This document shows positions 5,802 through 64,000 of a stretch of DNA of 64,000 nt, in pieces. This DNA comes from Paragonimus westermani. Lineage: Eukaryota; Platyhelminthes; Trematoda; Plagiorchiida; Troglotrematidae. The stretch is taken from contig QNGE01002723.1 in NCBI GenBank assembly GCA_008508345.1, positions 1 to 64,000 of the forward strand. Direction: 5' to 3'. Made by a program: the position numbers and the translations under genes. Below the pieces are notes generated by a model that saw nothing but the letters and a program-made list of their open reading frames with translations, searched no databases and was not told the origin of the DNA. Each line of letters opens with the position of its first letter. Positions within the stretch are counted from its first letter, which is position 1.

Positions 5802-6107
5802 TGTAGTGAGGATAGATGGTCGCACCATACTACTCACACCACTATTCAGTAGCCGCATGGATCGAAATGATCGCGGAATAAATACGGGAGAGATATGGGA
5901 AGGATCGTTGGAAGGCAGAATGACATTTAATGGCTGTCGCTACATTACGGAACTGAGAGATGGTATCCAAAGCGACTGGAGCATCCTCAGAAAAGTGCGG
6001 TGTGCAAATGAGTGTTTTTGGTCCTAGTCCCGTTGAGAGGCTTAAGTAGTGTATTGGTTTCTCCAATAAAACATCCTTTGTGTCGTCCGCCTTCTAGATT
6101 CACAACA
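5802..6107 (+). repeat. 5' LTR of Gypsy copy 1
   Basis: Begins TGTAGTGAGG and ends TTCACAACA, the same ends as the repeat at 10076-10378. An AATAAA polyadenylation-type hexamer lies near 6066. The bases after the LTR (ATTGTTGCCGTGACC) should hold the primer binding site, but they do not begin with the usual TGG, so I cannot name a primer tRNA. A third, truncated copy of the LTR lies at 33893. Confidence 0.9.
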
Positions 6108-6133
6108 ATTGTTGCCGTGACCAGGATACAAGG

Positions 6134-9100
6134 ATGAAGGTCCCGTGGCCACAGCCGTTTGAGGATGGGGATGTTCGGAGTTTCCTGGAGGACTTCGAGG
6201 ACGTGGCGGAAGCGGTCGGAGTGAAAGCGGACCGGGCGAAGCTGGCAGCCCTGCGGATGCTGCTCAAGGGCAAGGAGAAGGCGGTGCTGGATGCGGCGCG
6301 AAGTGGTCTCGCGAAGCTGGAGTGGGCCGCCGCGAAGGAGGTGCTGATCGCCGGGTTCAACAGCCCCGCCGACTGCCAGGAGGCGATGAGGCGGTTCAAG
6401 GGCGCCCGGCTTGGACCAGGAGGCGATGCTCTGGTCTACGCCATGTCCCTGCGGGCAGCGTTGTCAAGAGCCCTGCCGCATTTGGACCAGGACTCAGAAC
6501 AACGACTGCTGATGGCACAGTTCTTGGACGGAATGCCACCAACAGTCCGGGATCAACTCAGGGTCGCTGTCATCACACAGCCCATGACGCTGGAACAGTT
6601 GGCCGATGCAGCTCGACAATTGCTAGCAGAAAATGCTGCGACAGTCAACGAGGTGGAGGCAAACGGACCGAGTGAACTGAATGACCTTCGAAGCGCGGTG
6701 GAAAAGTTGACTGAGGAAGTGGCGGCTTTGAAAGTGAAAAAGGAGGAGAGCCGTCGCGACGTTTGTTACGGATGTGGAAGACGTGGACACTGGCGAAGGT
6801 TTTGCCCACTCGGCAAGAAAAGGTCGTACGCTAATAAACGATTTGTCGATTGTTTTTTGTTTGGGAATGGGGATCCGGTGATAGGGGCGGTTGATAAGAC
6901 AGCGGTTCAGGCTAGGTTAGAAGTCGATGGTAAATTGGAGTACTGTTTGATTGACACTGGGGCCGCGATTTCGTTGATTGGGCCGAGGCCGGGAAAGACT
7001 GTGCGGCCGTGTGCGATGGTTGTCCGAACGGTCGGTGGGTTTGCCCTCAAAGTTGATGGCCTGGCAGAATATGGTGTTCGAATCGATGGTCAGGTAGTCA
7101 ACCAACCGTTCGTCATTGCCCCCGACGCACGTCAGACTATCTTGGGGGCGGATTTTCTTGACCGCGTTGAAGCCGTGATTGATTTGAAGCATGATAAACT
7201 GGTAACGAAGTATGGGGTGGTTCCACTGGTGGGAAAGCGCAAAACCCAGCTTGGACAAATTGAAGTGAACGTACCCAGAGCAATGCCAACTTGTGACAAT
7301 CAGTTGCTGAACAAAGTGATACGCAAGTTTCAGGGATTGTTCACTACGGATCAGGACCCGTATGGCTATTGTGACTGGGTTGAACATGAAATCCCCATCG
7401 AATCAAAGCGATTTCGGCCATTCGGACCCCGAAGAATTCCAGTGCATTTGCAGCCGGAAGTTGAACGACAAGTGAAGGACATGCTGAAGGAAGAAATCAT
7501 CGAGGAGGCCGATAGCCCGTTCAACTCTCCTGTCTTGTTGGTAAAGAAGCCTAACGGTAAATTTCGATTCTGTGTCGATTTCAGGCGGCTGAACGAGATA
7601 ACGATCAATAAAGTGGTAGCAGTCCCGTCGGTGGCGGAGATTTTTGACAAGCTGCAGAACGCCCGGGTGTTTACAGTGTTCGACTTACGGTCCGGATATT
7701 GGCAGGTCCCAATCAAACAATCGGACCGAGATAAGACAGCATTCACAGTGGGTGAAAAGCAATACCGCTTCAAGCGGATGCCGTTCGGACTCTCAGGCGC
7801 CCCGTTCACGTTCAGACGACTGATGCTGAAGGTGTTGGACGGAGTGAGCAACACTGTTGTCTATGGAGACGATATCGTCATTTACAGCACAAATGAGACA
7901 GAACATGCAGTACACGTTTCAGCAGTGCTACAGAAGATTGAGACAGCCGGCCTCCGGATCAATAGTTCAAAGTCTCAACTGGCGAAGCAAACGGTAACAC
8001 TGCTCGGTCACAAGGTCGGTCAGGGGGAGGTCCAGCCACTGCCCGAGAAACTGCTGACAATCGAGGCTATTCCGGTGCCAACATCGAAGAGGACGCTGAG
8101 ACAGTTTCTCGGTCGCGTCGGGTTCTACAGCCGCTTCATCAAAAACTTCCATGACCTCGCGAGTCCGTTATACGAAATTCTGAGGAAGGATTGCCAATTT
8201 CATTGGTCACAGAAAGCCAACCAAGCGTTCGTCGAGATCCAACGCTTGATGAAAGAAGGACAGCTGACTCTGAAATTGCCAGTGACTGGACAGAGCTTCA
8301 TTGTCTCAACGGATGCGAGTGATGTAGGAATTGGAGCGGTACTGAAGCAGGAGGACGGTGTGGTGGAATACGCCAGTCGGGTACTGAGTCCTGCTGAACG
8401 AAACTATTCAACGACAGAGAAAGAATGTTTGGCAATCGTATGGGCCTTGGAAAAATGGAGGCCGTACTTGCTCGGCCGACAGTTCCATGTGGAGACTGAC
8501 CACAAACCGCTGGAGTGGATTAAATCGGCGAAGGACCCTCGAGGAAGGCTGGCTCGTTGGGCATTACGACTACAGGAGTACGACTTCACAATTCGCCACT
8601 TGTCCGGGAAAGAGAACTGTGTACCTGATTTGCTTTCCCGAACGCAACACTTCGATGAGGTCCACAAGGACGTGGTCGGAGTTAACAGTATTGAACTCGA
8701 GAGTGACCCCGGGAAGTTACAAGCAGTACAGAGAATGGATACGACGATCCGGACGGTGATTGACCGACTCTTGTCGGGAGGACAACCGCCAGAGGACGAG
8801 CTGAATCCGGAATTGAAAGCTTTCAGAACGCACTGGTCCGATTTGCGGCTGAATAGTGCCGGAATTTTGATGCGCCAGTTGCGAGAGGGAATAAACGTCC
8901 CGGTCATACCGGCGGAATTGAGGGCGACAATTGTGAAAGAATGTCATCAGCTGGCTCATACGGGTTGTCATCGAACTTATGAAATGCTGAAACAAAGAGC
9001 ATACTGGCCGGGAATGAAGAATGACGTTAACAATTATGTGCGTGCGTGCCAGCAATGTCAGTTAGTGAAGAGCACTAACCACCCCAGTCAGTATCCCACA

Positions 9101-10141
9101 CAACCGATTCCGGTCAGTAAAATTGGGGAACTGTGGTCGGTGGATGTGATGGGCCCCTTTCCAGCAACGACCTCCGGAAATCAATACATCATAATCATGA
9201 CCGAACACTTCACAAGGTGGATCGAAGCAGCCGCCATACCCGATCAGCGCGCAAGCACGGTGTGCAGGGCTGTGATGGAGCACATCATAGCGGATCACGG
9301 AATACCGCGAAGCATATTGACTGATCAAGGCCCCTGCTTCGAAAGTGAGGAGTTTCGGAACTGTTTGGAGCGTTTGGGAATCAAGAAAATACGCACAACT
9401 CCATATCATCCTCAATCAAACGGATTGACGGAGAGGAACAATCGCACAATCAAGGAATGGTTGGCTGCGAAAGGGGGAAACTGGGAAGAAACGTTACCGT
9501 TGATTCTGTTGGCTCACCGCTGTTCGCCGCAAGGGACAACGAAAAAGTCGCCATTCGAGCTAATGTATGGGTGCGTGCCACGCTTGCCAGTCGATCAGGA
9601 GATTGGTTTATGGGGAGACCGACGGATGAACACGCGTGAATTAGTGGAATCTCGGAGATCGGCCAACCGAAACTTGAAAAACACACAAGAAGCGTCTAAG
9701 GGGCAGTCAACTGCGAGGTTATCGGGTCAAAGGACTGTGTATGAACCTGGATCTAAGGTTAAATACCGAGACCATGTATCAGTTACCTCCTGTATCGAAA
9801 GCCATTATATACCCGCATCTAGGAAGTCCTTGGCAAAGTGGAGGGGACCGTATGTGGTATTTGAACGTCGTGGCCCAGTGTATCTGATAAAGAATGAGAA
9901 AAGTCAATATCGAGTGCACGGAAGCCAGCTTTGTAAATGGTACGACAATCCGAACAGAAGAGGATGCACACCACCTGTGTCAACAGCACTGAGGCTGGCA
10001 CGTAGATCATCAAGAGAACGAAGAGAACCTGAACGCCTTTTGTTACGACTGGAACAATCTTTGCGGGGGGAGGAGTGTAGTGAGGAGATACGGTCGCACC
10101 ATACTACTCACACTATTCAGTGGCCGCGTGGATCGAAATGA
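6134..10141 (+). CDS. Gag-Pol polyprotein of Gypsy copy 1
   Basis: A 1335-residue fused polyprotein that would package, process, reverse-transcribe and integrate the element. Visible parts: Gag to about residue 205, with the tract LTPEE-like acidic and basic helices before it; a CX2CX4HX4C zinc knuckle at 211-224; an aspartic protease with DTGA at 274-277; reverse transcriptase with the catalytic box YGDD at 577-580; RNase H beginning around STDAS, Asp727; integrase zinc region H942, H946, C972, C975; and catalytic D1004, D1064, E1100 with the standard 35-residue spacing between the last two. No stop or frameshift interrupts it. The start is the first Met after the 5' LTR (26 bases downstream). 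The stop codon lies inside the 3' LTR, so the last ~20 residues are LTR-encoded. YGDD is less usual than YLDD or YIDD. Gag and Pol share one frame, so no ribosomal frameshift is needed. No chromodomain was recognised at the C terminus. Confidence 0.92.
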   Translation: MKVPWPQPFEDGDVRSFLEDFEDVAEAVGVKADRAKLAALRMLLKGKEKAVLDAARSGLAKLEWAAAKEVLIAGFNSPADCQEAMRRFKGARLGPGGDALVYAMSLRAALSRALPHLDQDSEQRLLMAQFLDGMPPTVRDQLRVAVITQPMTLEQLADAARQLLAENAATVNEVEANGPSELNDLRSAVEKLTEEVAALKVKKEESRRDVCYGCGRRGHWRRFCPLGKKRSYANKRFVDCFLFGNGDPVIGAVDKTAVQARLEVDGKLEYCLIDTGAAISLIGPRPGKTVRPCAMVVRTVGGFALKVDGLAEYGVRIDGQVVNQPFVIAPDARQTILGADFLDRVEAVIDLKHDKLVTKYGVVPLVGKRKTQLGQIEVNVPRAMPTCDNQLLNKVIRKFQGLFTTDQDPYGYCDWVEHEIPIESKRFRPFGPRRIPVHLQPEVERQVKDMLKEEIIEEADSPFNSPVLLVKKPNGKFRFCVDFRRLNEITINKVVAVPSVAEIFDKLQNARVFTVFDLRSGYWQVPIKQSDRDKTAFTVGEKQYRFKRMPFGLSGAPFTFRRLMLKVLDGVSNTVVYGDDIVIYSTNETEHAVHVSAVLQKIETAGLRINSSKSQLAKQTVTLLGHKVGQGEVQPLPEKLLTIEAIPVPTSKRTLRQFLGRVGFYSRFIKNFHDLASPLYEILRKDCQFHWSQKANQAFVEIQRLMKEGQLTLKLPVTGQSFIVSTDASDVGIGAVLKQEDGVVEYASRVLSPAERNYSTTEKECLAIVWALEKWRPYLLGRQFHVETDHKPLEWIKSAKDPRGRLARWALRLQEYDFTIRHLSGKENCVPDLLSRTQHFDEVHKDVVGVNSIELESDPGKLQAVQRMDTTIRTVIDRLLSGGQPPEDELNPELKAFRTHWSDLRLNSAGILMRQLREGINVPVIPAELRATIVKECHQLAHTGCHRTYEMLKQRAYWPGMKNDVNNYVRACQQCQLVKSTNHPSQYPTQPIPVSKIGELWSVDVMGPFPATTSGNQYIIIMTEHFTRWIEAAAIPDQRASTVCRAVMEHIIADHGIPRSILTDQGPCFESEEFRNCLERLGIKKIRTTPYHPQSNGLTERNNRTIKEWLAAKGGNWEETLPLILLAHRCSPQGTTKKSPFELMYGCVPRLPVDQEIGLWGDRRMNTRELVESRRSANRNLKNTQEASKGQSTARLSGQRTVYEPGSKVKYRDHVSVTSCIESHYIPASRKSLAKWRGPYVVFERRGPVYLIKNEKSQYRVHGSQLCKWYDNPNRRGCTPPVSTALRLARRSSRERREPERLLLRLEQSLRGEECSEEIRSHHTTHTIQWPRGSK
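10065..10075 (+). promoter_or_regulatory. Polypurine tract of Gypsy copy 1
   Basis: GGGGGGAGGAG immediately precedes the 3' LTR, the expected place for the RNase H-resistant plus-strand primer. It also encodes glycines near the end of Pol. Confidence 0.75.
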
Positions 10142-14700: not shown

Positions 14701-17700
14701 TTCGTACCCTCGTTGAACCGAATACCGTATTCTCTGGTGCATGCTAAACGCCGCGACCGCGGCCGGTCTTCTCATAAGTTCTTTCACACTCGCGCTTGTA
14801 AGCGGATGTTAAGTCTTTTGACTGCAGTCGACTCTGCCACAAGTGACCTCTACGAAGGTCATTGGGTGTGAGTTTGCACACATACGGGTACACGCCTTTT
14901 ACCGCTCGGCGAAAGTAACATGATCGCGCGAGTGAATTTATGAACCTAAGAATGGATGCCACGTGAAATAAGATACGACTGATCTGAAAAGCAAAGTGCA
15001 TCCCGGGAAATGCTTGCGTGGTGATCCAACCGGTGACTGCCTGGTGCATTACATTATTTGATAATTACATACATACATTTTTAGACCCAGAACTAAACCG
15101 AAAAGTGAATATACATGTAGGATTTATACACACTACCTTAATTTGCAAATCGTAGATAGCGAACATGGAAAACATGTTGTTGGACAAGTATACTGAGGTT
15201 CATGTTACGCAAACTGTGATACTGAACTAGCCGTCATTGAACAATTCGGACGGAATAGTAATCAGCGTGTGCCGCGGTATGGCACGTGGACAGGCATTCA
15301 GTGTCACATGCATCCAGCGTGCAGTCGCTGTTGTTTAAATAGAGCGTACATTCATAATTTTTGGAACTACGGTACAAATCGTGAACACAGCCAATTTTTT
15401 TTTAGATCTCCAGAAGACCATAATTGCTTTTACATTGACAGTACGACTATTGGAAATAAAAGGGCGTGTATTTGTAAGATTTTGGCCAGAAATCATTATT
15501 GAAACTTGGCGCAACCGATTCCCGTTGTTCAGGAATACTGAAGGTCATAGATTAAAATCTGTTCCGCTACTATGTCGGCAGCGTTGCAGCGGTTGACATG
15601 TGTTTTGCAATAACTTTCGGTTATAAATTCTGTACACCGCAACTTATGTTTGTTTTGTCATGCCAACAAAAATTCACAGCCTAACCATTGAAACCACTGG
15701 ACGTTACACCAGCTGTCAACGTTCTATGACTGATTATATCAGTGTTTTAAGCTTGTTTGTCAACACGTTACTCGTTAATGGTTTCTCAACAGCCGAATGA
15801 ACCCATATTGGTGGGTATTCCACTCTGGTTACAACATGGCGCTAAGACCTGCATTCATACCCCCCTGTCTTACATTTATGGGGCCTTTTGCGTTTGTTAA
15901 AGTTTGAGCTCATTTGTCCAGATCGATTCGATTGTTTGAAGAGGAGAGTAAAAGATAACCTTCACTAAGAATAAAATATTAGTTCATAGCTGGTTAAGAT
16001 AATGTTGGTCAGTAATAACAACGACCGAAATGTCCCTGTTTCATTGTCCAAAAGTCATGCAGCAGAACAGTGTTTTTCACATCCAGACTAGCATTGCATT
16101 ATGATTGAAACAATGAATTTTGTTCTTACTGAATCGATCGCTCTTACCAACTAAATTAGTGATTATAGCTATATGGGTAACACTCATAAAGCTCTCTACC
16201 CTGAAAATCCATTAACTGTTGTTGTTTCTTCATTCTAAGTTCTACTCGATGGACAGTTTCCCTATAGACGACAGAGATAACTCCATCTAATAGGCAACCG
16301 CTACCTGGAAAAACTGTTCGAAATGAAAGACTTCATTCTTCAATTTTTTCCCAATGCTTGCAAAGTCGCACACACACCAGATGTGTTTTGTATGCTCGTA
16401 ATACAAAGCTGCCGGACTTTAGGCGGTGATGGTTTCAGATATGCGTTTGGTACCTGAATCAAACATTCCGTTGGCATTCTTACGTTGATGTCTAGAAACA
16501 GCGGTTGATCTTCACTTTTATGTTCGTCTATTTGGACAATTGTGAGTAAGCGAATATCAGCAGTTCAGTGTTCATAGAGCGTTAAGTTGATGTGATATCT
16601 CATCGAAGTTTGGGGTTTCAGACGTTTTCAAGCTGAACACCGTCCACACTCGAGCACAGCCTTCCCATTCAGAAATGCCTTTCCATTGGCCCACTTCGAA
16701 AAGAAACATTAGAATTAAGATTCGCTCATATTTGTATGCATTAATGGTGTATAGTCTCGTTCGCGCTTGTGAGACCAGCGGGTTAATCACAACGCCGGTA
16801 CCCTAACACTTCCGGTCCGGAAGAGGAAATGAGCCACCGATGAGCCCTGATAGGTCTGAATGATGTTAAATTTTAAACTATTTGAAATCGTTTTTGTATC
16901 TTAGGTCCATCGGTCAGTTCGAGGGTGCTAAACAGGTATGTCCATGTGTACTTGTCGCTCTGTTGGTCGTACATTGGATTGTTCTGGTCGTTTGCATGGT
17001 AGGTGTGTTAGCACCGAAGTTTTGAATCCTGCTAAGATAACTTTTGTTGACTTGTGAGGGTTGATTAAGAAGCGATCAGGGAACTGTCATTGCTGGTGCA
17101 AACTTCTAATCACACTGTCTTTTGAATTTCATTCCGATCGACAGTCCCTTTAGTAAGACATGCAGTGCCCGTGTTTAGTAACTACAATCCATAACCTTTT
17201 TAACAGTTAACTTGAAAGCATAGGTTCCATCTATCAAAATAGGTTTCCTAATTTGTCGTTATTCAAGAGTAACTGTCACAGTCTTATCTCGTTACTCACG
17301 GTTAACTTTTAGGTTTCTTTTAACTTACATGAGAAACAGTTAGTTTTGACATCTTCTGAATTTTGCAACATTATAGTATAACAAAAAAACGATATGACTG
17401 TCCACTTATTACACTTCATACGTTTAACCTTATGTATGAAGCCAAGTAACCAACTAGCAACACAAACATATCATGACCAATTATTTCACCGCTAAAAATT
17501 AGTGCAAAAATGGTTTACAAGATTAGGATAATGCTACTCTCGATATTGCCCCTCAAAGCCGATTATCCCCAATTCTTCTACATGTTTGATCAAACGTGTT
17601 AAGTTAATGCAAAAACTTGTACCATTAGCTACCGTTTGTTAATACTTCAGTATCATGTGAATTGACAGAAATCCAGGCAAAGAATCCTCTTGGAAGACAC

Positions 17701-18776
17701 CACCAGACCTCACGGTACAGAATTGATATTTCAAGAAGTGTTGCAGTTAGACAGAGAATCCACACCTAATCCATCACGTTCATAGGGACTTTACCAGCTG
17801 ACTGACAATTTCCCGCTTTCTTCGGGGGGTTGATTAACAGATCGTTTTTCATGAATAAGACGACCTTGAGACTGACACTGAGAACTTTCAGTCTCCACTG
17901 ATACAACATTTTACGAAAGCGGCCTATGTAAACTTTGCAGTAACTTGACGAAAGACCGTTTAGCCTAAAGGTGTTTGGATGTACAAAAGTAATTGTTTCA
18001 TGCAGACCCGGTTACTTTTAAGTTGATTTACCAAAGCTGTATTTTACACACAAGTAAGTAAGATTCCGAGAGATTCATGTGTACAAAAAGTAGCTAGTGC
18101 AAAGCCATTTAGAGTCTAGTCAAAAATCTCCCGGAACTCACTTGTTCCTGTTTTAAATTGGATGTGCTCATCTTATTTGAATGGCAACACTGAGCCATAG
18201 AAACCATTCAGAATTTATCAGGATCTTTGACATATCGAGCTCCTTAAAAACTGGCCTGGTTCAAAATACTACAAGGCTGGAACCTGTTGATTATAATTGA
18301 TGGTCAGGTGAGATGATTTCATCAAGACGAAATTATCTTGGAACTGCTCATAAATATAATTTAAACTGCTCATAGAACCGAGGGTTGACGGCAAACGGCA
18401 AATGGCGACTGTATGGCTCTCGTTTACGATATGGGATGTTGATTGTTAATATAGTTGAACAGCATCTAGATTGTCCGGTTGATTCAAACAGACCATTCGA
18501 AATGACCTGTCTGAAAAATCGTACTGTTGGCTGTCTTATTCATTAGTAGTCAGATATTTACTCTCTCCTCTCAAGATGATTGAACAACCCGAGTGGTAAC
18601 CACAAGAGATTACCATCGGACGCGTGTGTGTGATTACTTGACCATGCCCATTACGCTCGTGTGAAACGCACAAGGATTGACGCTGAGAAAGACTTGCTCC
18701 GAACGTCGTGTTGCGCTCAAACTTATCGTTAGACACTTCTAAAATATTTAAATGAGTACCAACTGTGAAAAGTCAG
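11731..18776. other. 7-kb stretch without recognised genes
   Basis: Only short open frames with no family resemblance are present. An 18-base CA run lies at 12138-12155. Around 14593-14610 a short segment resembles one near 42536-42550 (both contain TATCGCTACGCGTTGCTC), so at least one dispersed repeat passes through. I cannot support any gene here. Confidence 0.5.
12138..12155 (+). repeat. CA microsatellite
   Basis: Nine uninterrupted CA dinucleotides. Confidence 0.9.
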
Positions 18777-18856
18777 GGCTTCGGCTGGATTCGAACCAGC
18801 GACAGACACGGCATGCCTCAACGCGGCAAGCGCTCTACCAGCTGAGCTACGAAGCC
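18777..18856 (-). tRNA. tRNA-like sequence with abnormal anticodon region (probable pseudogene or SINE head)
   Basis: On the minus strand, 80 nt fold as most of a tRNA. The acceptor stem is a perfect 7 bp (GGCTTCG with CGAAGCC), the D arm is GCTC/GAGC, and the T arm is GCTGG/CCAGC with loop TTCGAAT, giving consensus A-box and B-box promoter elements. The middle is wrong for a normal tRNA. About 31 nt lie between the D and T stems; the best anticodon stem (CTTGC with GCATG) has one mismatch and a 9-nt loop, leaving an 11-nt variable region. I therefore do not assign an amino acid. It could be a pseudogene, a pol III-competent SINE head, or a tRNA with a small insertion. No CCA is encoded. Confidence 0.6.
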
Positions 18857-20150
18857 ACACCGGGAGCTCGGAAATTTCACATTTGGACTCTCTAAAATAG
18901 ACTAACAAGGGGAACCATGGAGTTCATTGGTTGCTTTCAAATTGAGTCATCCATTGCATTCATGTGAATTCGAGGGCTATGAGCAAATGTGAATGGCACT
19001 CAGAGTATGATGAAATAGTTATTCCCAAGGTACCGCTCGGTTAGTTTTCTTTCAGACGTCACATTCAATAACGCATTCCAAGTGATGCTCGGAAGATCAA
19101 AATCACAGTGTATACCGGTTGCCGCTCGTGATGCGTAGGTCGGGTGTTCTGATCTCTGACAAATGACAGCACGTGAATTCAACCGGCTCAGCACTGAGAA
19201 TGAGTGTGAGTGAACGTCACAGAACGATGAAATTACTTCACATTTTTGTTCATGTGTTCCATTATGAGCGTGTGACATGCGAATTGTGTTAGGTGAGGCA
19301 ATGTGATGTGAGTGTGGATTGAATGACTGGATGAATAAACGTGAGTACTTGTTATTTTCTGTCATGGGAACCTGCAACCTTATCTTGAAAACTGGGCATC
19401 GCCGTACAGTATCATCTAGCTCACGGTTTACGGCTCACGCTTCGTGTTGCTTTCTGTGTAAAATAACGCATCATGATGGTCGAGTTAGCAAATGTATGGA
19501 GTCCCCAGAAGGAGGTTTGCTGAACGAGACTGGGTTCAACAAACGGTGACATTACGAGGGTAATTTTTATTAACTGTACTGTTGGTTCATGGAATTTCAC
19601 TTGTGACAAGAGAATGAAGGTAGCTGGTTCATAGAATAAAACTGATCGGTTGAGGTCTTGTTCAGTTACTACCACGTTGAGCATCTAATCCGAGGCGAAA
19701 GCAATTCCACTTTCTGTGTCGGGTTGAGTGTGAGTGCACCACCTAGCCTGTGCCACAAGATACACACGTTTGGACTATTCGTATTAAACTGAATAATTAC
19801 TAACAACATCTCAATTATGAAGGGTCATAACATTAAACTGATTGTTTCTCATCTTAATCAATGTGTACGTGTTTTACATCAGTATTTTTTCCGCTCCACT
19901 TCAACGCGGATACGGAAGCACATATGCGCGACTGTGTGACTGTTCCGAGAATCTTTGAAAAGTCAAATATCACCCAATTTTTTCAACTGTGAATACACTA
20001 TGTTTACGAATTGTGTTAAAAATGTTTATCGATTGAAGTTAACAGGACAGCTACTGTGTCTCCTTTCAAGACGAACGGACAACCTGATAATTGCTCACAA
20101 GCGAGAGTGGTTGAGCATTCGGATGTAATAATTCGGTCGTGCCTAATGTG
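18857..20150. other. No gene recognised
   Basis: Short open frames only, without recognised domains. The short hammerhead SINE begins right after this stretch. Confidence 0.5.
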
Positions 20151-20510
20151 AAGTCAGTGGCGCAGTCGTCAACACGGTTGCCTCATGATTGGAATGGCTG
20201 GAGTTCAAATCTCGGCCGTGGCAATGATATGCACTACTGACGAGCTCTAATGAGAGCGAAACTCGAGTTTAGTGCTTCTTTTCGAAAGAGGCTGGTTGGA
20301 AAGTCTATCTGAATGCGAAGGCTGCGATCAAATGTGAGTGATGGTCAACCTGAAAACAAACCAAATCCCTTACTACCCATCAGTAATCAGAAAATGTCTC
20401 TGGTGGAAATCTGTATGCAAAACTGAGTTACTGTTGTGACTTCTGGAATGTCATGCGTGATTGTATTTCATTTTGCGGACGACTTCCTTTTTGTTGAACA
20501 GGACTATATC
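20151..20510 (+). repeat. tRNA-headed SINE-like repeat with hammerhead, copy 1
   Basis: A repeat of about 360 bp. The head looks tRNA-derived: an A-box-like TGGCGCAGTCG at 20158-20168 and a B-box-like AGTTCAAATCT at 20202-20212, the internal promoter of RNA polymerase III. A complete hammerhead ribozyme follows at 20231-20275. The ~235-bp body that follows is nearly identical to 46037-46271, and both copies end at GGACTATATC, which defines the 3' end. There is no coding capacity. The arrangement of tRNA promoter plus hammerhead is known from schistosome S-alpha elements. Sequence kinship beyond that architecture is not claimed. Confidence 0.85.
20231..20275 (+). ncRNA. Type I hammerhead ribozyme, copy 1
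   Basis: All hammerhead parts are present in order. Stem I is GCACTA/TAGTGC (6 bp, 20231-20236 and 20270-20275). The core CTGACGA is at 20237-20243. Stem II is GCTCT/AGAGC with loop AATG (20244-20257). GAA is at 20258-20260. Stem III is ACTC/GAGT (20261-20268) with no loop, followed by the cleavage-site base T at 20269. Predicted self-cleavage falls between 20269 and 20270, after a GUU triplet (allowed by the NUH rule, usually slower than GUC). The four-base-pair loopless stem III resembles the minimal stem III of schistosome hammerheads and may favour cleavage as a dimer. The identical structure at 45992-46036 supports selection or recent spread. Confidence 0.88.
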
Positions 20511-33892: not shown

Positions 33893-35147
33893 TGTAGTGA
33901 TGATAGACGGTCGCACTACACTACTTACACCACTATTTAGTAGCAGCTTGGATCGAAATGATCGTGGCGGAAGCGGTCGGAGTGAGGGCAGACCGGGCGG
34001 AGCTGGCGGTTCTGCGGATACTGCTCAAGGACAGGGCAAAGACGGTGCTGGATGCGACGCAAAGAGGCACTGCGAAGCTGGAGTGGGCCGCCGCGAAGGA
34101 GGCGCTGATCGCCAGGTTCAACAGCCCCGCCGACTGCCAGGAGGCAATGAGGCGGTACAAGGGCGCCCGGTTTGGACCAGGAAGCGACACTCTGGTCTAC
34201 GCCATGTCCCTGCGGGCAGCGTTGTCAAGAGCCCTGTCACATTTGGACCAGGACTCAGAACAACGCCTGACGACGACACAGTTCTTGGACGGAATGCAAC
34301 CAACAGTCCGGGATCAGCTCATAGTTGCTCTCATCACACAGCCCATGACGCTGGAACAGTTGGCCGATGTAGCTCGACAATTGGCGACAGAAAATGCCAC
34401 CACAGTCAACGAGTTGGAGGCAAGCGTTCCCAGTGAACTGAATAGCCTTCGAAGCGCGATGGAAAAGTTGACTCAGGAAATGGCGGCTTTGAAAATGAAA
34501 AAGGAGGAGAGCCGTCGCGACATTTATTACGGATGTGGAAGACGGGGACACTGGCAAAAAATTTGCCCACCCGGCAAGAAACGTTCGTACTTTAATAAGC
34601 GTTTCGTTGATTGTTATTTGTTTGGGAATTGAGATCCGGTAATAGGGACGGTTGATAAGACAGCAGTTCAGGCTAGGTTAGAATGCAATGGTAGCTTGGA
34701 GTACTGTTTGGTTGACACTGGGGCCGCGATTTCGTTGACTGGGCTGAGGTCAAGAAAGATTGTGCGGCCGTGTGCGGTGGTAGTCCGAACGGTCGGTGGG
34801 TTTACTCTGGAAGTTGACGGTCTGGCATAATATGGTGTTCGAATCGATGGTCAGGTAGTCAACCAACCGTTCGTCATTGCCCCCGACGCACGTCAGACTA
34901 TCTTGGGGGCGGATTTTCTTGACCACGTTGAGGTCGTGATTGAGTTGAAGCATGATAAACCGATAACAAAATATGGGATGGTTCCACTGGTGAGAAAGCG
35001 CAAAAGCCAGTTTGGACAAATTGAAGTGAACGTACCCAGAGCAATGCCAACTTATGACAATCAGTTGCTGAACGAAGTGATACGCAAGTTTCAGGGATTG
35101 TTCACTACGGATCAGGACCCGTATGGCTATTGTGACTGGGTTGAACA
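33893..35147 (+). mobile_element. Gypsy copy 2 (truncated relative of copy 1)
   Basis: Begins with about 70 bases of the same LTR (TGTAGTGATGATAGA...), which then jumps directly into Gag at GTGGCGGAAGCGG. About 330 bases covering the rest of the LTR and the Gag start are deleted, with a CG microhomology at the joint. Gag continues open (33958-34632) to the zinc knuckle CX2CX4HX4C around 34528-34569, then meets a stop where copy 1 reads GGG. A second stop lies at about 34828 in the protease region, downstream of DTGA. Sequence resembling copy 1 residues 335-415 continues to 35147, where the assembly gap begins. Inactive. The remainder of Pol and the 3' LTR are not seen. Confidence 0.88.
33958..34632 (+). 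pseudogene. Truncated Gag of Gypsy copy 2
   Basis: Open for 224 codons. It corresponds to copy 1 Gag from about residue 25 through the zinc knuckle, including a CGRRGHW finger. The N terminus is replaced by a few LTR-encoded residues because of the deletion, and translation stops before the protease. It might be made as an N-terminally shortened Gag if transcribed, but there is no sign of that. Confidence 0.75.
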
Positions 35148-35854
35148 NNNNNNNNNNNNNNNNNNNNNNNNNNNNNNNNNNNNNNNNNNNNNNNNNNNNN
35201 NNNNNNNNNNNNNNNNNNNNNNNNNNNNNNNNNNNNNNNNNNNNNNNNNNNNNNNNNNNNNNNNNNNNNNNNNNNNNNNNNNNNNNNNNNNNNNNNNNNN
35301 NNNNNNNNNNNNNNNNNNNNNNNNNNNNNNNNNNNNNNNNNNNNNNNNNNNNNNNNNNNNNNNNNNNNNNNNNNNNNNNNNNNNNNNNNNNNNNNNNNNN
35401 NNNNNNNNNNNNNNNNNNNNNNNNNNNNNNNNNNNNNNNNNNNNNNNNNNNNNNNNNNNNNNNNNNNNNNNNNNNNNNNNNNNNNNNNNNNNNNNNNNNN
35501 NNNNNNNNNNNNNNNNNNNNNNNNNNNNNNNNNNNNNNNNNNNNNNNNNNNNNNNNNNNNNNNNNNNNNNNNNNNNNNNNNNNNNNNNNNNNNNNNNNNN
35601 NNNNNNNNNNNNNNNNNNNNNNNNNNNNNNNNNNNNNNNNNNNNNNNNNNNNNNNNNNNNNNNNNNNNNNNNNNNNNNNNNNNNNNNNNNNNNNNNNNNN
35701 NNNNNNNNNNNNNNNNNNNNNNNNNNNNNNNNNNNNNNNNNNNNNNNNNNNNNNNNNNNNNNNNNNNNNNNNNNNNNNNNNNNNNNNNNNNNNNNNNNNN
35801 NNNNNNNNNNNNNNNNNNNNNNNNNNNNNNNNNNNNNNNNNNNNNNNNNNNNNN
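35148..35854. other. Assembly gap (707 Ns)
   Basis: Undetermined bases. The left edge lies in Gypsy copy 2 Pol, the right edge in LINE fragment C. Open frames running through it are meaningless. Confidence 0.99.
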
Positions 35855-36470
35855 TGCTGAAGTCCACGAACAGGGCATGAAGAGGCTGGTTGCGTTCTCG
35901 ACATTTCTCCTGAAGCTATCGAGCATCAAACACAGGGTCGGTCCTACTGCGACTCGCCCGGAATCCGTACTGCTCCTCAGGAACACCCGTCTCCAAGACT
36001 TCCGTATTCAGCCGTTTCAGAAGGATTCTGCCATGCAGCTTGTCTGTGCAGCTCAGAAGACCGATGACGTGATAATTGTCGGCGCATTGCTTACTACCTC
36101 TACCTTTGAACAGAGGTACGATAAGGACATCCTTGAAATCTGACGGCATCACCTCTTGTTCCCGGATAGAGTGAACCAGTGGGAGCAGTACACATTCCAG
36201 CGTCGGTGCATCATTCTTCAGCATTTCATCTGACAATCCATCCTCACATTCAGCTTTTCGGTTGCGCAGTTATCTGATCGCTGTTTGTACCTCTGGCAAA
36301 TTCGTGGTGAGATCAAGCGAAGGTTTGGTATGCTGTTGCGGCATGCTGTTCACAGTCACCAAATCAATAGTAGCAGGGAGATTTAAAAGTTTACCAAAGT
36401 GTTTACACTCCACTATTATGATGTCCTCTGGATGCACGAACAGACGGTGTCCACATCAACCAGTGCTTCA
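35855..36470 (-). pseudogene. RTE-like LINE fragment C: RT start and linker
   Basis: Near-duplicate of 33359-33888 (same RT segments PLFKGRGSKQCADNY and VPEEQYGFR on the minus strand, 35916-36236). Unlike fragment B it runs uninterrupted past the Gypsy insertion point (AAAG at 36386-36389) into linker sequence that matches the start of fragment A (TTTACC-AAGTGTTTAC at 36390 and 10383). It therefore gives the empty-site version of the locus. Cut by the gap at its 3' side. Confidence 0.82.
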
Positions 36471-38657: not shown

Positions 38658-40515
38658 ATGATGTTCTCCGATCAACTTCAGCAACATTCGCCAACGTCTG
38701 AGGAGAATCAAAATTGGTTGAAAGCAAAACTGGTGGATGTCACCTACCAACATCGGAATTACAAACAAAAGCGTCACAACTTACTAACACCGGCACACTT
38801 CCAAAGCCTGAGAGAAATAAGACAAAATGAGAACTTGATGGTTAAGTCCGGACGAAGGCTCAGGGGTTGTGTTGATGGATAAAGCGGAGTACGTGGACAA
38901 AATGTTCGAAATTCTTAATGACACTCAGAAGTTTCTCCCGGATGATAATCCTGATAACGTCCAAGAAGTGGAAAAGGAAATCTGCCGCAGGCTGGAAGGG
39001 TTGAGGATAAACGACGTCATGTCTGTTGATCAATGCAGGCTGATGAAGCCAGTCGGCATACGCACACCGCATATGTACGGACTGCCTAAAACACACAAAC
39101 CCAATGTCCCACTTCAGACTATTATGTCCATGTGTAACGCACCGCAGCATAAATTAGCCCGTTGCCTAGCTGATTTGCGGGAACCAGTCAGAAAACAGTT
39201 CAGTAAGTACAGTCTGAAGAACAGCTTTGAACTTGTTAACTGTATAGATGGTTTAAATGTCCGAGATAAACTGATGTGTTCATTTGACGTGACATCCCTG
39301 TTTACTAACATTCCGCTTCATGAAACAGTTGATAGCATTTGCGAATTCATTGTAAGTAGCAGTGCTCCTTTTCCTATCCCGATTGTCGAACTGAAATCTT
39401 TATTACTCCTATGCACACATAATGTAAGGTTCAACTTTCAAACGCATAGTTTCCGACAAGTGGATGGGGTTGCAATGGGCAGTCCGTTGGGTCCACTTCT
39501 AGCGGATTTCTTCATGGCCAAAGTAGAATCCACACTATGCGAAAGCCTGTCAAAACCAGTGCTGTACAGACGCTACGTAGATGATATTCTGGCCATCTTT
39601 GACAGCTCCAGTGAATCGAATGCGTTATTTTCGAAGTTGAACCAGGCTCACCCGAACCTAAAACTGACAAGAGAGAACGAAGCGAATGACTGCCTTCCGT
39701 ACCTGGACATTCTAGTCACTCGAAGACAAGATGGCACAGTAGGGAGATCCGTCTACAGGAAACCTACCTGGACTGGACAGTACATGCATTTCGAAAGCTT
39801 CTGTCCGGTGCAGCATAAGAGAAGTCTAGTCAGGACGCTTTTCCATAGAGCACGGAGGATTTGCACGGAAGACAACCTACAACTAGAGTTAGGCTTACTG
39901 ACAGACACTCTGCAGGTCAACGGGTACCCTCTGGGGTTTATTAAAAAGTACAGCAAAGCCGTCATCCCAACCGTAGAAGTGACGACGGTACCGAAGAGGA
40001 CGGTGTATTTAGAACTCCCGTTTCTAGGGGACAGCTGGTCAACAATGACGAGGAAGCGTCTAACAGCGGCTGTATCCAGGACTTATAACGCTGCAAAACT
40101 GTGCGTAATACAACGAACTAGAACTCTACCAGTCGCCCCGGTTACGAACAAACAGTGTACGTCTGTCACATCTCACTGTCTATACAAATACTCATGTAGC
40201 TGCAGTATGAGCTACATAGGGAGGACAAACCGACAACTAGCTGTTCGTATCAAGGAGCATGTACCCAAATGGTTGGAGACGCAATTAGAAACGCCAGGAG
40301 CCTGTATAGATGCCAATGGACGGCACCCCGCATCTTCCGTCGCAAAGCACATAATACAAACAGGACACAGTCAAAGTTTCTGACGCGTTCTCGGTGATCT
40401 TTCGGAGCAACCGGAAACGCATACTCCAGTTTGCTGAGGCTTTGGCCATTAAACGTCACAGTCCCCCCCTATGTGTTCAAAAACAATTTGTGTTGACACT
40501 GCGGCTACCCTGGTA
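38658..40515 (+). pseudogene. Penelope-like retroelement: RT plus GIY-YIG endonuclease
   Basis: The main frame (38869-40383, 504 codons) holds a Penelope-type reverse transcriptase: PKTHKP, SFDVTSLFTNIP (first catalytic Asp), VAMGSPLGP, and the YVDD box at 236-239. A C-terminal endonuclease of the GIY-YIG type follows, with cysteines around CSCSMSYIGRTNRQL (YIG at 449-451) and SSVAKHIIQTGH. Penelope-like elements use this nuclease to prime on chromosome DNA. Two lesions are visible. Near 38850 the upstream frame (38658-38882) breaks just before the conserved VVLMDK segment. Near 40375 a frameshift removes the final ~45 residues, which remain readable in another frame to a stop at about 40512. 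The first Met of the main frame is internal, not a true start. Flanking terminal repeats were not found. Confidence 0.85.
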
Positions 40516-42232: not shown

Positions 42233-45200
42233 GGCCAGACACTAAGTCACACGTAAGACTGATTCGATCGTCTTTGGTTGGCTCGATTGGTCCTATTGAC
42301 TGTCTACACTTGTGTCTATCGTTACATATTTCCATTCCCGAAGACCTATTGAGGCTAACTGTTGTGCATTATCCTGAGCACGCAAACCAATTAAGGTCCG
42401 TTTCTTGTAACTGAACAGACTGTACTAATAATGCTGAGCGTGCAGTGACTTGATTTGTTTCTGAGATTCACTATCACCGTTCACATGCTTGTCGGTCAAC
42501 GTTTACCAGAAATTTCGCGAGGTCAGTATTTGTATCGCTACGCGTTGCTCAACGTCTTCGTGGAAGAACGTATAGTATTGTCAAAATAACGCTACCGGCC
42601 TTCTGGAAAGATATGAGCACTGTTTGTTTCTTATGTCTGTAAACTTTAGAAATTCAACATTTCGAAGTTATCGTGCGAAATATATTATATTCAGTAGCAA
42701 TTTGTTGCTATTTAAAGTGCGTATCATTTGGAACTGATGTAGCACTGTCTCTGTGTGTATGAAAACGACGCGGACAAGTTCTTTCCGACAACCATCGGAC
42801 ATATGGATGCATCAGTAAATAAGCAAAATCTCCGCTGTTCTTCACAAATTGATAGAAAAAGGAGACCATGAAGCAGTAATGATTCGATGAAGTAGACAGT
42901 GTGTTTTACACTTACAAGCGATTCATATAAATGTCTCTCCCTCCATTTTCCACGATCAGCTGTTGAGTGTACGCAGTACAGTGAGTGTGAAAACTGGGAA
43001 AACTTGGGAAAAAGCCGTGCCTCACTGTATATCGATCTCTCATTAATTAATCTTTATTGATATGTCCACTCTTCGCTTCAGGGTGCCTTTCTCTCTTTTG
43101 AATGATTGTCTACAATAAGTTCAGATTTACTGGGAATCAAAGTGTTTAACCCTTGGAAATATTAGACAATCTCATTATTACGTGTTATAGTTGTTTGTTG
43201 GAAATGGATTTTTCCTATCGAGAGATATCATACGAACAACTAACTGTCAACATACAGGTTTGCCTCACCGACAAAAATATGAATCCCCTCATTCTATCAC
43301 TGTCGTTATCCGCGGTCCTTCATCAAATCATTTTGAATGACTTCGAGAACCACTGGTCCCGTTGATAAGAGTTTTATTGGAAACCGATAATTGCCTGTCA
43401 GCTCAACTAAACTGTTTTTCATTGGGTTCATTCGACAATTGAACGGATCTCAAAGTACAGGATTGAGAACAGGTGCCACGTTACTTAAGCTGAGAACTAA
43501 TCGCATATGACTGCAGCTTTCACATTCCCATGGGTCTTTCGGCCAGCCCACTTTGTAACTAAGCGATACACTAGCGTTTCGGTATTAGTATGCTCGCTGA
43601 GCTTAATTATGCAGTGATAATGTCACCTGGCTCGGTGATGAAACGTTTGTAACCCAAATACCACGCTTGGCGAACATACCAATATCAAAACCATCAACCC
43701 GAGCTACGAACAACGCCACCACTGTTCCCAACCATTAAATACTATAGTTTCGCTCATGTTAGATTTCAGTAGTAGTACATATCCTTCCCACTAATGGAAA
43801 TTGAATTCCTATCACAATTTTGTGAGCAATCCTGTTGATCGCTTTGCCACTGGTCTTACAATAGACGCGACCGAATTATCGCATGCAAACATTGAGCTAC
43901 ATTTGGTTATGTGGAGTGCTCAGACTGTCCAATTACCTCGACTCCAGTCGATAACCACACATTAAGTACTGGTCATGTAGCACCCCAATCAGCGTAACTA
44001 GGTCCAGCTAATAAGCTGAAACTAGTCACTTCCTACTAGACTATCAGAACGACAAATGCCAGCTCCTGGCTGACTGGTTGTGTAAACGGCATTCAAATGA
44101 ACCATCACATTAATAAGATGTTGTTTGGCTTAGTTTAACATTATTGATCTAATTTTAAGTCAAGGTTAGAGACGGTCATATTGCGATGGATGACTAAATT
44201 GCAGGCGCGATTATTCAAACACTCGATGGAATATCACAACTCGACCATGAGGTATGTCCAAAGCCCACAATGATTAGATTGCAGACAACAAGGGAGACCG
44301 GGCGAGCCATCGCGCAACGAAATCGAATGAACCGATGAGGAATAAGAGACAAAATATTCACTACAGAAGGCGTCAGCACACGCACAAACCAGACAGAAGT
44401 ACGAACGACATGCGAGTGAAAACCGACGCTGCGTTGTGGACTGAAATTCCGGCTCACAAACGCAAGCGTGTATGTGGCGTGGGAACGAGCGAGTTGGACA
44501 ATAGCATCATACTTTCATTGGGCGACTTTTTGCTACTATGTACTGAAGCTAATAACTGTCTTCGTATTTAGTGTGATTTGTGCGATAAACTCCACGTAGA
44601 GCCTGTAATGGTTCACAGATATACGCAGTTTATCAAAACAGCTGTACACATTTTAATCCCAACAAAAAAAAAGAATATTAAAAGTTTATTCACATCAAAC
44701 TGATGATTTAAGTGGATAACTACTAGTGCGTGAAATGTACACTTTTTGGTTTAGTGGACAAAAGAGTAACTTTAACAATTATCAGACAGTGGCTTAAACA
44801 ATTAGATGAGTCGGTACACGGTAAACAGGGGACGGCTCAAAGAAAGTTTATACTGTCAATTCAGAACACGTCATGCGCAGCAAGTCTGAGAAATATCTCA
44901 TTAACCTTCGGTGAAATCAATAAACAGGGATATATATATATCAAAATTAGCTCCTAACGAATAGAAAGTACGAATTAATTTGTGGTTGTTCTGAGTAGGG
45001 CTTTGTTCGTTCACTGAAAAGATGCCGGCTTATGGTTGTGACCCATAGTTTCATCGTTCATCGCCTGCATACAGCAGCATTCACATGATCAACAAAGTTA
45101 GCGCAATGGTCTTTGGTGACGTTACAAATGCCAAAAGTGACCCTCTGATCCAGTACCCGCATTCTTCACACCTGTTAACTTAGCATATCCTGAAGATCTC

Positions 45201-45925
45201 CGTCTATCATAGTTGCCTGGTGCACTTCTAAATGCCTTCCAACTCTTGCTTTCATCACGCTTCAAACGTTTCTAATGGTAACACTTGTCCCCACTAAATC
45301 ACTCTTCAGCAAACGTGCATTTCAGATTAATGTGACACCTTACGTTATCGTATATAGACACAATTTCTGAAATATGCGTACTGATTTTCACCTGATCCAA
45401 CAGGGTCTACAGACATTTCTTACGGTTGCTGCTGTTGTACGCTCCTCTCCTGGTCGTTTGGCTGAATATCGAGCTTAATACCTCAGGGTAATGGATGACC
45501 AAGTTAATGATGCAGATATTCCAACAATCAGAGAAATATCTCGAACGGGTGGACTACGGAAAACAGGAGCCATCACTCAGCAAAATTGGGTCAACGGGCG
45601 AGAAATGGTAGGGAAAAATCGATAACAGGTAGTGTGAGCCAAACGCACAGAACTAAGCACAGGTGCATGTGACGTTTAACTAAAAATTTCGCTGCGCTGT
45701 GGATTGGAATTCCGGTTCGTAAACGTCAGTGTGTGGTATGAAAATGCGTAACTTGCCTTAATAAACAACGTTCCGCTACGGTAGCTTCACTTTAGTGAAA
45801 AATAAAGCCTCGGCTATTTACTATAGAGATGATTGACCTCGTTCATGTTAAAAGAAAATTTCTTCGACCTCGTACAGAACAACTTAAAATTCGTCTCATC
45901 AATCAACAAACAATCTTTGAACTTT
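42233..45925. other. No gene recognised; a diverged repeat pair
   Basis: Positions 44425-44490 and 45690-45755 are diverged direct copies of a short sequence (GCTGCGTTGTGGACTGAAATTCCGGCTCACAAACGC-like versus GCTGCGCTGTGGATTGGAATTCCGG). No genes are supported. Confidence 0.45.
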
Positions 45926-45955
45926 CAATTTGACCATCAATCACATTTGATCGCN

Positions 45956-46271
45956 TGGTCGGAGTTCAAATCTCGGCCGTAGCAATGATATGCACTACTG
46001 ACGAGCTCTAATGAGAGCGAAACTCGAGTTTAGTGCTTCTTTTCGAAAGAGGCTGGTTGGAAAGTCTATCTGAATGCGAACGCAGCAATCAAATGTGAGT
46101 GATGGTCAACCTGAAAACAAACCAAATCCCTTACTACCCATCAGTAATCAGAAAATGTCTCTGGTGGAAATCTATATGCAAAACTGAGTTACTGTTGTGA
46201 CTTCTAAAATGTCATGCGTGATTGTATTTCATTTTGCGGACGACTTCCTTTTTGTTAAACAGGACTATATC
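45956..46271 (+). repeat. tRNA-headed SINE-like repeat with hammerhead, copy 2
   Basis: Nearly identical to 20196-20510, from just before the B box to the shared end GGACTATATC. The A-box half of the head is missing. In its place stands a single N (45955), preceded by about 30 bases resembling the reverse complement of the repeat's own body (GACCATCAATCACATTTGATCGC). Either a fold-back rearrangement or an assembly joint removed the head. Confidence 0.85.
45992..46036 (+). ncRNA. Type I hammerhead ribozyme, copy 2
   Basis: Base-for-base identical to the motif at 20231-20275: stems I (6 bp), II (5 bp, loop AATG) and III (4 bp, loopless), cores CTGACGA and GAA. Predicted cleavage falls between 46030 and 46031. 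Transcription from its own promoter is doubtful because the A box is absent here. Confidence 0.86.
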
Positions 46272-49567: not shown

Positions 49568-49735
49568 TGTGGACGGTGCAAACCAATAAGAACGAGCGAC
49601 AGAACGCAAGCCAATCAAGGTCAAGGAAGTTATATTTGTCTCATATATATTGATTCGCATTAAGACATTATTGAGATTCAATCTGTCGTGTAGTGAATAC
49701 ACCGTTCTTGATATCACCACTTGACTTCTTCTACA
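49568..49735 (+). repeat. 5' LTR of Gypsy element 3
   Basis: Begins TGTGGACGGTGC and ends CTTCTACA. Pairs with 53533-53700. Confidence 0.92.
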
Positions 49736-52170: not shown

Positions 52171-52303
52171 TATGATTGTGATATAATTTACACCCCAGGA
52201 AAGGATATGGTACTAGCCGATACGTTATCGAGAGCACCCGTACCTACATGCGAAGACAGAATTCGATCGGGTCTATCTCAAACTGGCCGAACCAGACGAG
52301 CGG

Positions 52304-63794: not shown

Positions 63795-63918
63795 CGATTA
63801 TGATTACGGGTATGTAGTGGGAAATTTAGCTGATATAAGTTGAGCGTCACACAACTGGTCGCAGTTGTCGCATATGAACAAATCTTCCAACCGGCCCCTT
63901 TCCAAACGAAGCACTATA
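63795..63918 (-). repeat. 5'-truncated SINE body beginning at the hammerhead cleavage site
   Basis: On the minus strand reads TAGTGCTTCGTTTGGAAAGG, then GGTTGGAAGATTTGTTCATATGCGA. This is a diverged match to 20270-20400, which begins TAGTGCTTCTTTTCGAAAGA. The match starts at the bases directly after the predicted hammerhead cut. The ribozyme core and tRNA head are absent. Confidence 0.6.
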
Positions 63919-64000
63919 CTTGCAGCGCAAGCCAATTGCAGTGATGGCTAAGCAAAGGCGTCCTTTGGCTTCGGTCACTGTGACAGGCTAATCCGAATCG
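63919..64000 (+). repeat. LINE-tail repeat, inverted copy running off the window
   Basis: Reverse-complement match to 61707-61790 (GGCGTCCTTTGGCTTC, GTCACTGTGACAGGCTAATCCGAATCG). Continues beyond position 64000. Confidence 0.8.

What the first reader, a model, noticed from the sequence alone, without database searches (positions are those of the whole stretch)
20151..20510. A complete hammerhead ribozyme inside a tRNA-headed SINE
Seen: three fully paired stems, both core strands, A- and B-box-like sites upstream, and a second copy with an identical ribozyme at 45992-46036. Known: schistosome S-alpha elements combine a pol III promoter with a type I hammerhead. Inferred: this genome has a self-cleaving SINE family whose transcripts are trimmed at 20269/20270. 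The loopless 4-bp stem III and GUU cleavage triplet differ from the common GUC form.
Basis: partly seen in the sequence, partly recalled or inferred. Interest (0 to 1): 0.8.

Follow-up and report, generated by a model that had tools for sequence, protein, structure and literature searches.

The report
Hammerhead ribozyme SINE in a fluke
A short mobile element in what is most likely a non-schistosome fluke has a tRNA-like start followed by an intact-looking self-cutting RNA motif, the arrangement known from blood-fluke elements; whether it cuts has not been tested.

Summary
A complete type I hammerhead motif lies at 20231-20275 (+), with an identical copy at 45992-46036. These are the window's only hammerhead matches at E <= 2 (Rfam HH9, 31.9 and 32.6 bits, E 4.2e-4 and 2.6e-4; curated cut-off 52, not reached). 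200 shuffles gave none with the strict settings. A tRNA-like head with A and B boxes at tRNA spacing lies just upstream and a body of about 235 nt follows, ending at 20510. Three decayed loci (16.7, 43.5-43.9, 63.9 kb) show a dispersed family. Retroelement proteins of the window are closest to those of digenean flukes (Paragonimus, Dicrocoelium; 50-65% identity); the species is not determined. The order of parts is that of schistosome S-alpha. The 'loopless 4-bp stem III' is better read as 2 bp with a UCGA loop, a usual metazoan form, inside a 12-nt palindrome that would also let two RNAs pair, as in newt hammerheads. Cleavage, genome copy number and trimming in vivo are untested; the genome-wide search did not complete. 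New member of a known kind.

The parts
20110..20510 (+). SINE copy 1 (5' end approximate, 20110-20118)
   Evidence: nhmmer and local alignment to the copies at 43.9 kb and 46 kb; 3' end shared with copy 2, flanks beyond differ
20151..20223 (+). tRNA-like head
   Evidence: best score against 21 recalled human tRNAs 42 (Trp); shuffles 25.1 +/- 3.3, 0 of 300 as high; against: Rfam tRNA model gives no match at E <= 10
20158..20168 (+). A box TGGCGCAGTCG
   Evidence: match to recalled consensus
20203..20211 (+). B box GTTCAAATC
   Evidence: match to recalled consensus, 45 nt from the A box start to start
20231..20275 (+). type I hammerhead motif; predicted cut between 20269 and 20270
20259..20270 (+). 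palindrome AAACTCGAGTTT centred on helix III
20276..20510 (+). SINE body; the stretch 20280-20350 is shared with the decayed loci
   Evidence: matches at 16.7, 43.5 and 63.9 kb
45956..46271 (+). copy 2, 5'-truncated at a single N; hammerhead 45992-46036
   Evidence: 10 differences in 316 aligned sites
43732..43897 (-). decayed relative c3a: head plus hammerhead remnant, helix III palindrome ACTATAGT
   Evidence: nhmmer 43741-43897, E 9.2e-13; motif to 43732 and palindrome; its head is not tRNA-like by the shuffle test (241 of 300 as good)
43487..43590 (-). decayed relative c3b: 3' half of a hammerhead plus body, same orientation as c3a
   Evidence: nhmmer E 2.1e-6; hammerhead part anchored on the body: 0 of 1000 shuffles as good; hammerhead part alone, unanchored: 53 of 500 shuffles as good
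16593..16789 (-). decayed relative c4: hammerhead remnant plus body
   Evidence: nhmmer E 2.2e-14
63797..63922 (-). relative c5: body only; match begins at 20264-20266 of copy 1, 4-6 nt before the predicted cut site
   Evidence: nhmmer E 2.2e-11 and local alignment
18903..19034 (+). possible further relic
   Evidence: nhmmer E 0.025; 1 of 500 shuffles as good

Best explanation
The feature is a non-autonomous retroelement (SINE) of a digenean fluke: a tRNA-derived head with a pol III type promoter, then a type I hammerhead, then a body of about 235 nt. Shown from sequence: the parts, their order, and a dispersed family. Inferred: pol III transcribes it; the ribozyme cuts between 20269 and 20270, leaving a head-ribozyme piece and a body with a 5'-OH end; helix III has only two pairs and a palindromic loop in one strand, so cutting by a single RNA is probably weak and two ribozyme copies pairing through helix III probably do it better, as in newts and axolotl. 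Transposition would use a reverse transcriptase supplied by another element; for hammerhead-bearing animal repeats Penelope-like elements have been proposed, and one lies in this window.
For: Covariance-model match in both good copies; none by strict descriptor in 200 shuffles. A/B boxes at tRNA spacing and tRNA similarity of copy 1. Shared 3' end with different flanks. Besides copy 1, five matches with E <= 1e-5: copy 2, c3a, c3b, c4, c5. Helix III: exact palindrome in copies 1 and 2 and, with other letters, in c3a. Adding the two pairs of helix III to stems I and II costs energy in the monomer (-7.4 against -8.7 kcal/mol; its lowest fold is another, -13.3), and the lowest fold of two 45-nt strands has the double-hammerhead layout, -36.1. 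Loop 2 (6 nt) and the internal loop of stem I (4 + 3 nt) have the sizes of the HH9 consensus. Papers: weak helix III and better cutting as dimers in amphibians and Penelope-type motifs (PMC7229834 passages; PMC7761336 section 8).
Against: No transcript or cleavage data. Scores below Rfam's cut-off. For the dimer step: two pairs with a tetraloop is called similar to invertebrate hammerheads, most of which cut well as monomers, so dimers may not be needed; the two-strand fold takes core A's and U's into a 12-bp helix and forms 5 of 6 stem I pairs, so it is the layout but not the active form itself; 95 of 300 shuffles gain as much by dimerising, and with flanks (74 nt) the lowest dimer fold lacks stem I. 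The head-plus-ribozyme fold pairs core CUGAC with 20153-20160. c3b is self-complementary only with G-U pairs and c4 not (my reading). c3a, c3b and c4 have no intact CTGANGA core. A TTTT run at 20278-20281 could end a pol III transcript just after the ribozyme. No target-site duplication beyond a 6-nt word. In a lizard Penelope-like element hammerhead mutants did not affect insertion in vitro (PMC11167929 passages).
Confidence: 0.68

Rival explanations
1. A SINE whose hammerhead is a relic: inherited from a retrozyme or S-alpha-like ancestor and no longer cutting; the two good copies are young and not yet decayed.
For: c3a, c3b and c4 have broken cores; identity of copies 1 and 2 over 45 nt is expected in about a quarter of cases at their divergence (10 of 316); GUU is a slow triplet (recalled).
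Against: All core letters and stems are intact in both good copies while the relatives lost theirs, which suggests that the source copy keeps them; loop sizes fit too.
Confidence: 0.2
2. A metazoan non-LTR retrozyme: a tandem-repeat element spread through small circular RNAs, of which the window shows scattered single units.
For: Type I hammerhead with weak palindromic helix III, non-coding, window G+C 44% (counts); two hammerhead remnants in one orientation at 43.9-43.5 kb; platyhelminths are named among hosts of retrozyme-like repeats (PMC7229834 passage). The review itself regards these retrozymes as a kind of SINE (PMC7761336 passage), so the two readings overlap.
Against: None of the 5 tandem-repeat rows found lies at an element copy; the 123-nt spacer of the 43.6-kb locus is not like the element (197 and 401 of 500 shuffles as good on the two strands); copies 1 and 2 are single units.
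Confidence: 0.2
3. A chance hammerhead-like sequence in an ordinary repeat.
For: Below Rfam's curated cut-off; the second copy is not independent evidence.
Against: E 4.2e-4 over the window against 4227 families; 0 of 200 shuffles; placed between a tRNA-like head and a body as in S-alpha.
Confidence: 0.03

Closest known systems
S-alpha SINE-like elements of Schistosoma mansoni and S. japonicum
   Same: tRNA-derived head, type I hammerhead, dispersed non-coding element, digenean host (PMC2770079 and PMC8490949 passages)
   Different: The S. mansoni head derives from tRNA-Gln (PMC2770079); here the best recalled match is tRNA-Trp (42), then Met (36) and Gln (34). Sequence homology with S-alpha was not tested: none of the tools I used holds its sequence.
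Metazoan non-LTR retrozymes (coral, mussel, axolotl)
   Same: type I hammerhead; helix III of two pairs with a tetraloop, or one pair with a palindromic tetraloop, in axolotl (PMC7229834 passages)
   Different: those are tandem repeats; no array is seen here. A tRNA head is reported only for the schistosome repeats (PMC4918200 passage)
Minimal hammerheads of Penelope-like elements
   Same: very short helix III; may act as dimers (PMC7761336 section 8)
   Different: here helix III has two cis pairs, loop sizes of stems I and II fit a canonical motif, and the carrier encodes no reverse transcriptase
Rfam Hammerhead_HH9 (RF02275)
   Same: best-scoring model; core, stem II, loop sizes
   Different: about 20 bits below its cut-off; helix III three letters shorter than the consensus

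Membership tests
Type I hammerhead ribozyme | core CUGANGA ... GAAA, A15.1-U16.1, H17, three helices, open at helix I | tested here: met
Type I hammerhead ribozyme | reaches curated Rfam score | tested here: not met
   31.9 and 32.6 of 52 bits for HH9; no other hammerhead family listed either
Type I hammerhead ribozyme | self-cleavage | not testable with these tools
   needs bench work
tRNA-derived SINE | internal A and B boxes at tRNA spacing | tested here: met
   copy 1; copy 2 is truncated before the A box
tRNA-derived SINE | tRNA similarity of the head | tested here: inconclusive
   copy 1: 0 of 300 shuffles as good; c3a head: 241 of 300 as good; no Rfam tRNA match, ARAGORN none at 80% or above
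tRNA-derived SINE | dispersed copies | tested here: met
   copy 2 and three decayed loci in 64 kb
tRNA-derived SINE | target-site duplications | tested here: inconclusive
   copy 1 only: longest shared flank word 6 nt
S-alpha family | sequence homology to S-alpha | not tested
   no S-alpha sequence was available in the tools used
S-alpha-like architecture | tRNA-like head followed by a type I hammerhead in a short dispersed element | tested here: met
Metazoan non-LTR retrozyme | tandem repeats of 150-450 bp with type I hammerhead | tested here: not met
   no array at any copy in this window; the rest of the genome was not reached
Metazoan non-LTR retrozyme | circular RNA | not testable with these tools
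   no RNA data
Dimeric hammerhead | helix III too weak in one strand and self-complementary between strands | tested here: inconclusive
   12-nt palindrome and energies for; dimer gain matched by 95 of 300 shuffles, 74-nt dimer fold without stem I, and usual invertebrate motifs of this size cut as monomers against

The most novel reading that the evidence does not exclude
Flukes outside the schistosomes carry a tRNA-headed SINE whose ribozyme cuts mainly when two copies meet through a self-complementary helix III, so that self-cleavage senses element dose or tandem arrangement; the cut at the head-body border then decides between a promoter-bearing RNA that can be copied and a body RNA with a 5'-OH end that can be circularised. 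The body-only copy c5, whose match starts 4-6 nt from the cut site, would be the product of a cut RNA. (Lowered from 0.12 on recheck: helix III of this size is reported to work in monomers in most invertebrate cases.)
Probability: 0.09. Interest if true: 0.7.

Novelty: new member of a known kind. Interest (0 to 1): 0.42.

Why it matters
In the papers I could search, hammerhead-bearing tRNA-headed SINEs are described from schistosomes. A second fluke lineage would let one ask whether the ribozyme is ancestral to digenean SINEs or was gained again, and, with copies of many ages in one genome, whether selection keeps the ribozyme in the copies that move.

Tried and rejected
Whole-genome copy count: the genome search 'own' was sent 11 times with the same request and never answered, so no covariation test over the family was possible. 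Exact 26-nt ribozyme pattern in viral contigs and genome contigs: 0 matches each; these are viral and prokaryote collections, so this says nothing about flukes. A full tandem unit at the 43.6-kb locus: the inner stretch is not clearly like the head (55 of 500 shuffles as good) nor like the whole element (197 and 401 of 500); two hammerhead remnants remain unexplained. Penelope-type minimal hammerhead near the window's Penelope gene: none by descriptor. tRNA by ARAGORN with relaxed scores: none at 95% and 80%, only untypable or unlikely fits at 70% and below. Thermodynamic proof of dimerisation: 95 of 300 shuffles gain as much. Head-like sequence upstream of c4 and c5: not beyond shuffles (98 and 62 of 500). 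Repeats within the element: none found.

Papers not held: Ferbeyre 1998 and Lunse 2017; what I say of them comes from passages of citing papers. Recalled, from no call: that GUU is slower than GUC, the A/B box consensus, the human tRNA sequences, that TTTT can end pol III transcripts.

Full report
What is there. The 45-nt motif at 20231-20275 has every part of a type I hammerhead: stem I (GCACTA/TAGTGC), CTGACGA, stem II (GCTC, loop TAATGA, GAGC), GAAA, helix III and the cleavage position T20269. The exact motif recurs at 45992-46036. Against the 4227 Rfam families these two places match Hammerhead_HH9 with 31.9 and 32.6 bits (E 4.2e-4 and 2.6e-4 for the whole window) and are the only hammerhead matches at E <= 2. 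The curated score is 52, so a default scan lists only a tRNA. With three descriptor settings I found these two motifs and no other; 200 dinucleotide shuffles gave 0, 0 and 3. Chance is a poor explanation.

The carrier. Upstream, TGGCGCAGTCG (20158) and GTTCAAATC (20203) fit the recalled A and B box consensus, 45 nt apart start to start; the same pair, with 20-60 nt between the boxes, occurs elsewhere in the window only in the tRNA gene at 18776-18856. The head of copy 1 aligns to recalled human tRNAs (Trp 42, Met 36, Gln 34; shuffles 25.1 +/- 3.3, 0 of 300 as good). Results against: Rfam's tRNA model does not see it at E <= 10, ARAGORN does not at 95% or 80%, and the head of relative c3a is not tRNA-like by the same test (241 of 300 shuffles as good). 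The body follows the ribozyme and ends at 20510; copy 2 ends at the same letter, with different flanks.

A family. A search of the window with copy 1 alone gives copy 2 (E 2.2e-91), c4 at 16.6-16.8 kb (2.2e-14), c3a at 43.7-43.9 kb (9.2e-13), c5 at 63.8-63.9 kb (2.2e-11), c3b at 43.5-43.6 kb (2.1e-6), an inverted piece at copy 2 (1.4e-4), a doubtful relic at 18.9 kb (0.025) and three weaker rows (E 2.4 to 9.7) that I set aside. Scores of a profile made from six stretches are circular for those six. c3a, c3b and c4 have no intact core; c5 does not reach the core. Copies 1 and 2 differ at 10 of 316 sites, none in the 45 of the ribozyme; at that rate 0 of 45 happens in about 24% of cases (own arithmetic), so the identity is no proof of constraint.

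c3 holds two hammerhead remnants in one orientation: c3a after a head and c3b before a body. Anchored on the body, the c3b remnant is better than 1000 of 1000 letter shuffles; taken alone it is matched by 53 of 500 dinucleotide shuffles. The stretch between them is not clearly similar to the head (55 of 500) or to the element (197 and 401 of 500). It is unexplained.

Helix III. ACTC directly followed by GAGT cannot fold back as four pairs. In one strand it gives two pairs and a UCGA loop. In the energy model that makes the ribozyme fold less stable than stems I and II alone (-7.4 against -8.7 kcal/mol), and the lowest fold is another (-13.3). The letters sit in a 12-nt palindrome, AAACTCGAGTTT, one of 17 palindromes of 12 nt or more listed in the window (two of them the two copies). 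Two 45-nt strands fold best in the layout of a double hammerhead, with stems I (5 of 6 pairs each), stems II and a continuous helix (-36.1); but that helix also takes in two core A's and the cleavage-site U of each strand, so it is not the active form as drawn. 95 of 300 shuffled sequences gain as much by pairing with themselves, and 74-nt strands lose stem I in the lowest dimer fold. In c3a the centre differs by two letters that pair with each other between strands (ACTATAGT), so the palindrome is kept; I put the chance of that, given two changes in eight letters, at about 1 in 20 (own arithmetic). c3b is self-complementary only with G-U pairs and c4 is not (my reading).

[quoted passage not shown] I saw the first two of six parts and passages). 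Most type I hammerheads of invertebrates are said to form a stable helix III and to cut as monomers, while Penelope-type minimal ones may cut as dimers (PMC7761336, section 8; the primary paper is not held). So the form of helix III here is usual; monomer cutting is possible and dimer cutting is my preferred but unproven reading.

How it would work. By geometry the cut falls between 20269 and 20270. In a dispersed single copy this parts the tRNA-like promoter and ribozyme from the body. The fold of 20151-20300 pairs the core CUGAC with 20153-20160 (-49.2 kcal/mol, 9 of 200 shuffles as good), so the head may hold the ribozyme shut; a blocked hammerhead is described for plant retrozyme RNAs (PMC4918200, passage). 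A TTTT run at 20278-20281 could stop pol III just after the ribozyme. In a lizard Penelope-like element, hammerhead mutants did not change insertion in vitro, and that ribozyme cut only with protein added (PMC11167929, passages). Whether the ribozyme helps or harms the element is therefore open. c5 begins 4-6 nt from the cut site, which is what a cut RNA would leave, but it is one case.

The host. Of the 120 best listed relatives of the Penelope-like reverse transcriptase at 38839-40383, the first three are from Paragonimus westermani (51% identity) and Dicrocoelium dendriticum (50% and 51%); schistosome relatives rank lower. Residues 400-1200 of the gypsy polyprotein at 6098-10141 are 65% identical to proteins of the same two species, 59-60% to Trichobilharzia and Schistosoma. 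The window is most likely from a digenean that is not a schistosome; the species is not determined, and the tools say elsewhere that records of the window's own genome may be left out.

Known and new. The order tRNA head, hammerhead, body is that of S-alpha, with more than 38,000 hammerhead candidates in S. mansoni and a tRNA-Gln-derived head (PMC2770079, passages), and active ribozymes (PMC8490949, passages and section 11). I ran nine searches of the open library. None listed, by title and abstract, a hammerhead SINE in a non-schistosome fluke. Limits: one search showed 20 of 3,590 papers and none of the 20 mentions hammerhead ribozymes; two searches showed 20 of 32 and 15 of 16; one search found no paper; subscription papers are not covered; and platyhelminths in general are named as hosts of retrozyme-like repeats. 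I file it as S-alpha-like in architecture; membership in S-alpha by sequence was not tested.

Noticed in passing
window 43487-43897 (-): Two hammerhead remnants in the same orientation, the first after a head and the second before a body, with a stretch of about 123 nt between them that is not clearly related to the element.
   Followed up: partly
window 38839-40383 (+): Penelope-like reverse transcriptase frame of 514 codons (several listed relatives have 800-880 aa, so probably incomplete); no hammerhead near it by descriptor.
   Followed up: partly
window 6098-10141, 49675-53323, 56159-59909: Ty3/gypsy-type retroelements by Pfam domains of three frames; the first has an open frame of 1347 codons.
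   Followed up: partly
window 33907-35925: Frames that resemble the first gypsy element by eye, interrupted by a run of N; the frame 33907-34629 has no Pfam match.
   Followed up: no
window 45922-45956: A single N joins a short inverted piece of the element's body to copy 2; possibly an assembly joint.
   Followed up: no
window 18776-18856 (-): tRNA gene (47.1 bits), called Asn by ARAGORN.
   Followed up: no
window 20280-20287: Second palindrome TTTCGAAA overlapping the TTTT run just after the ribozyme, present in copies 1 and 2.
   Followed up: no
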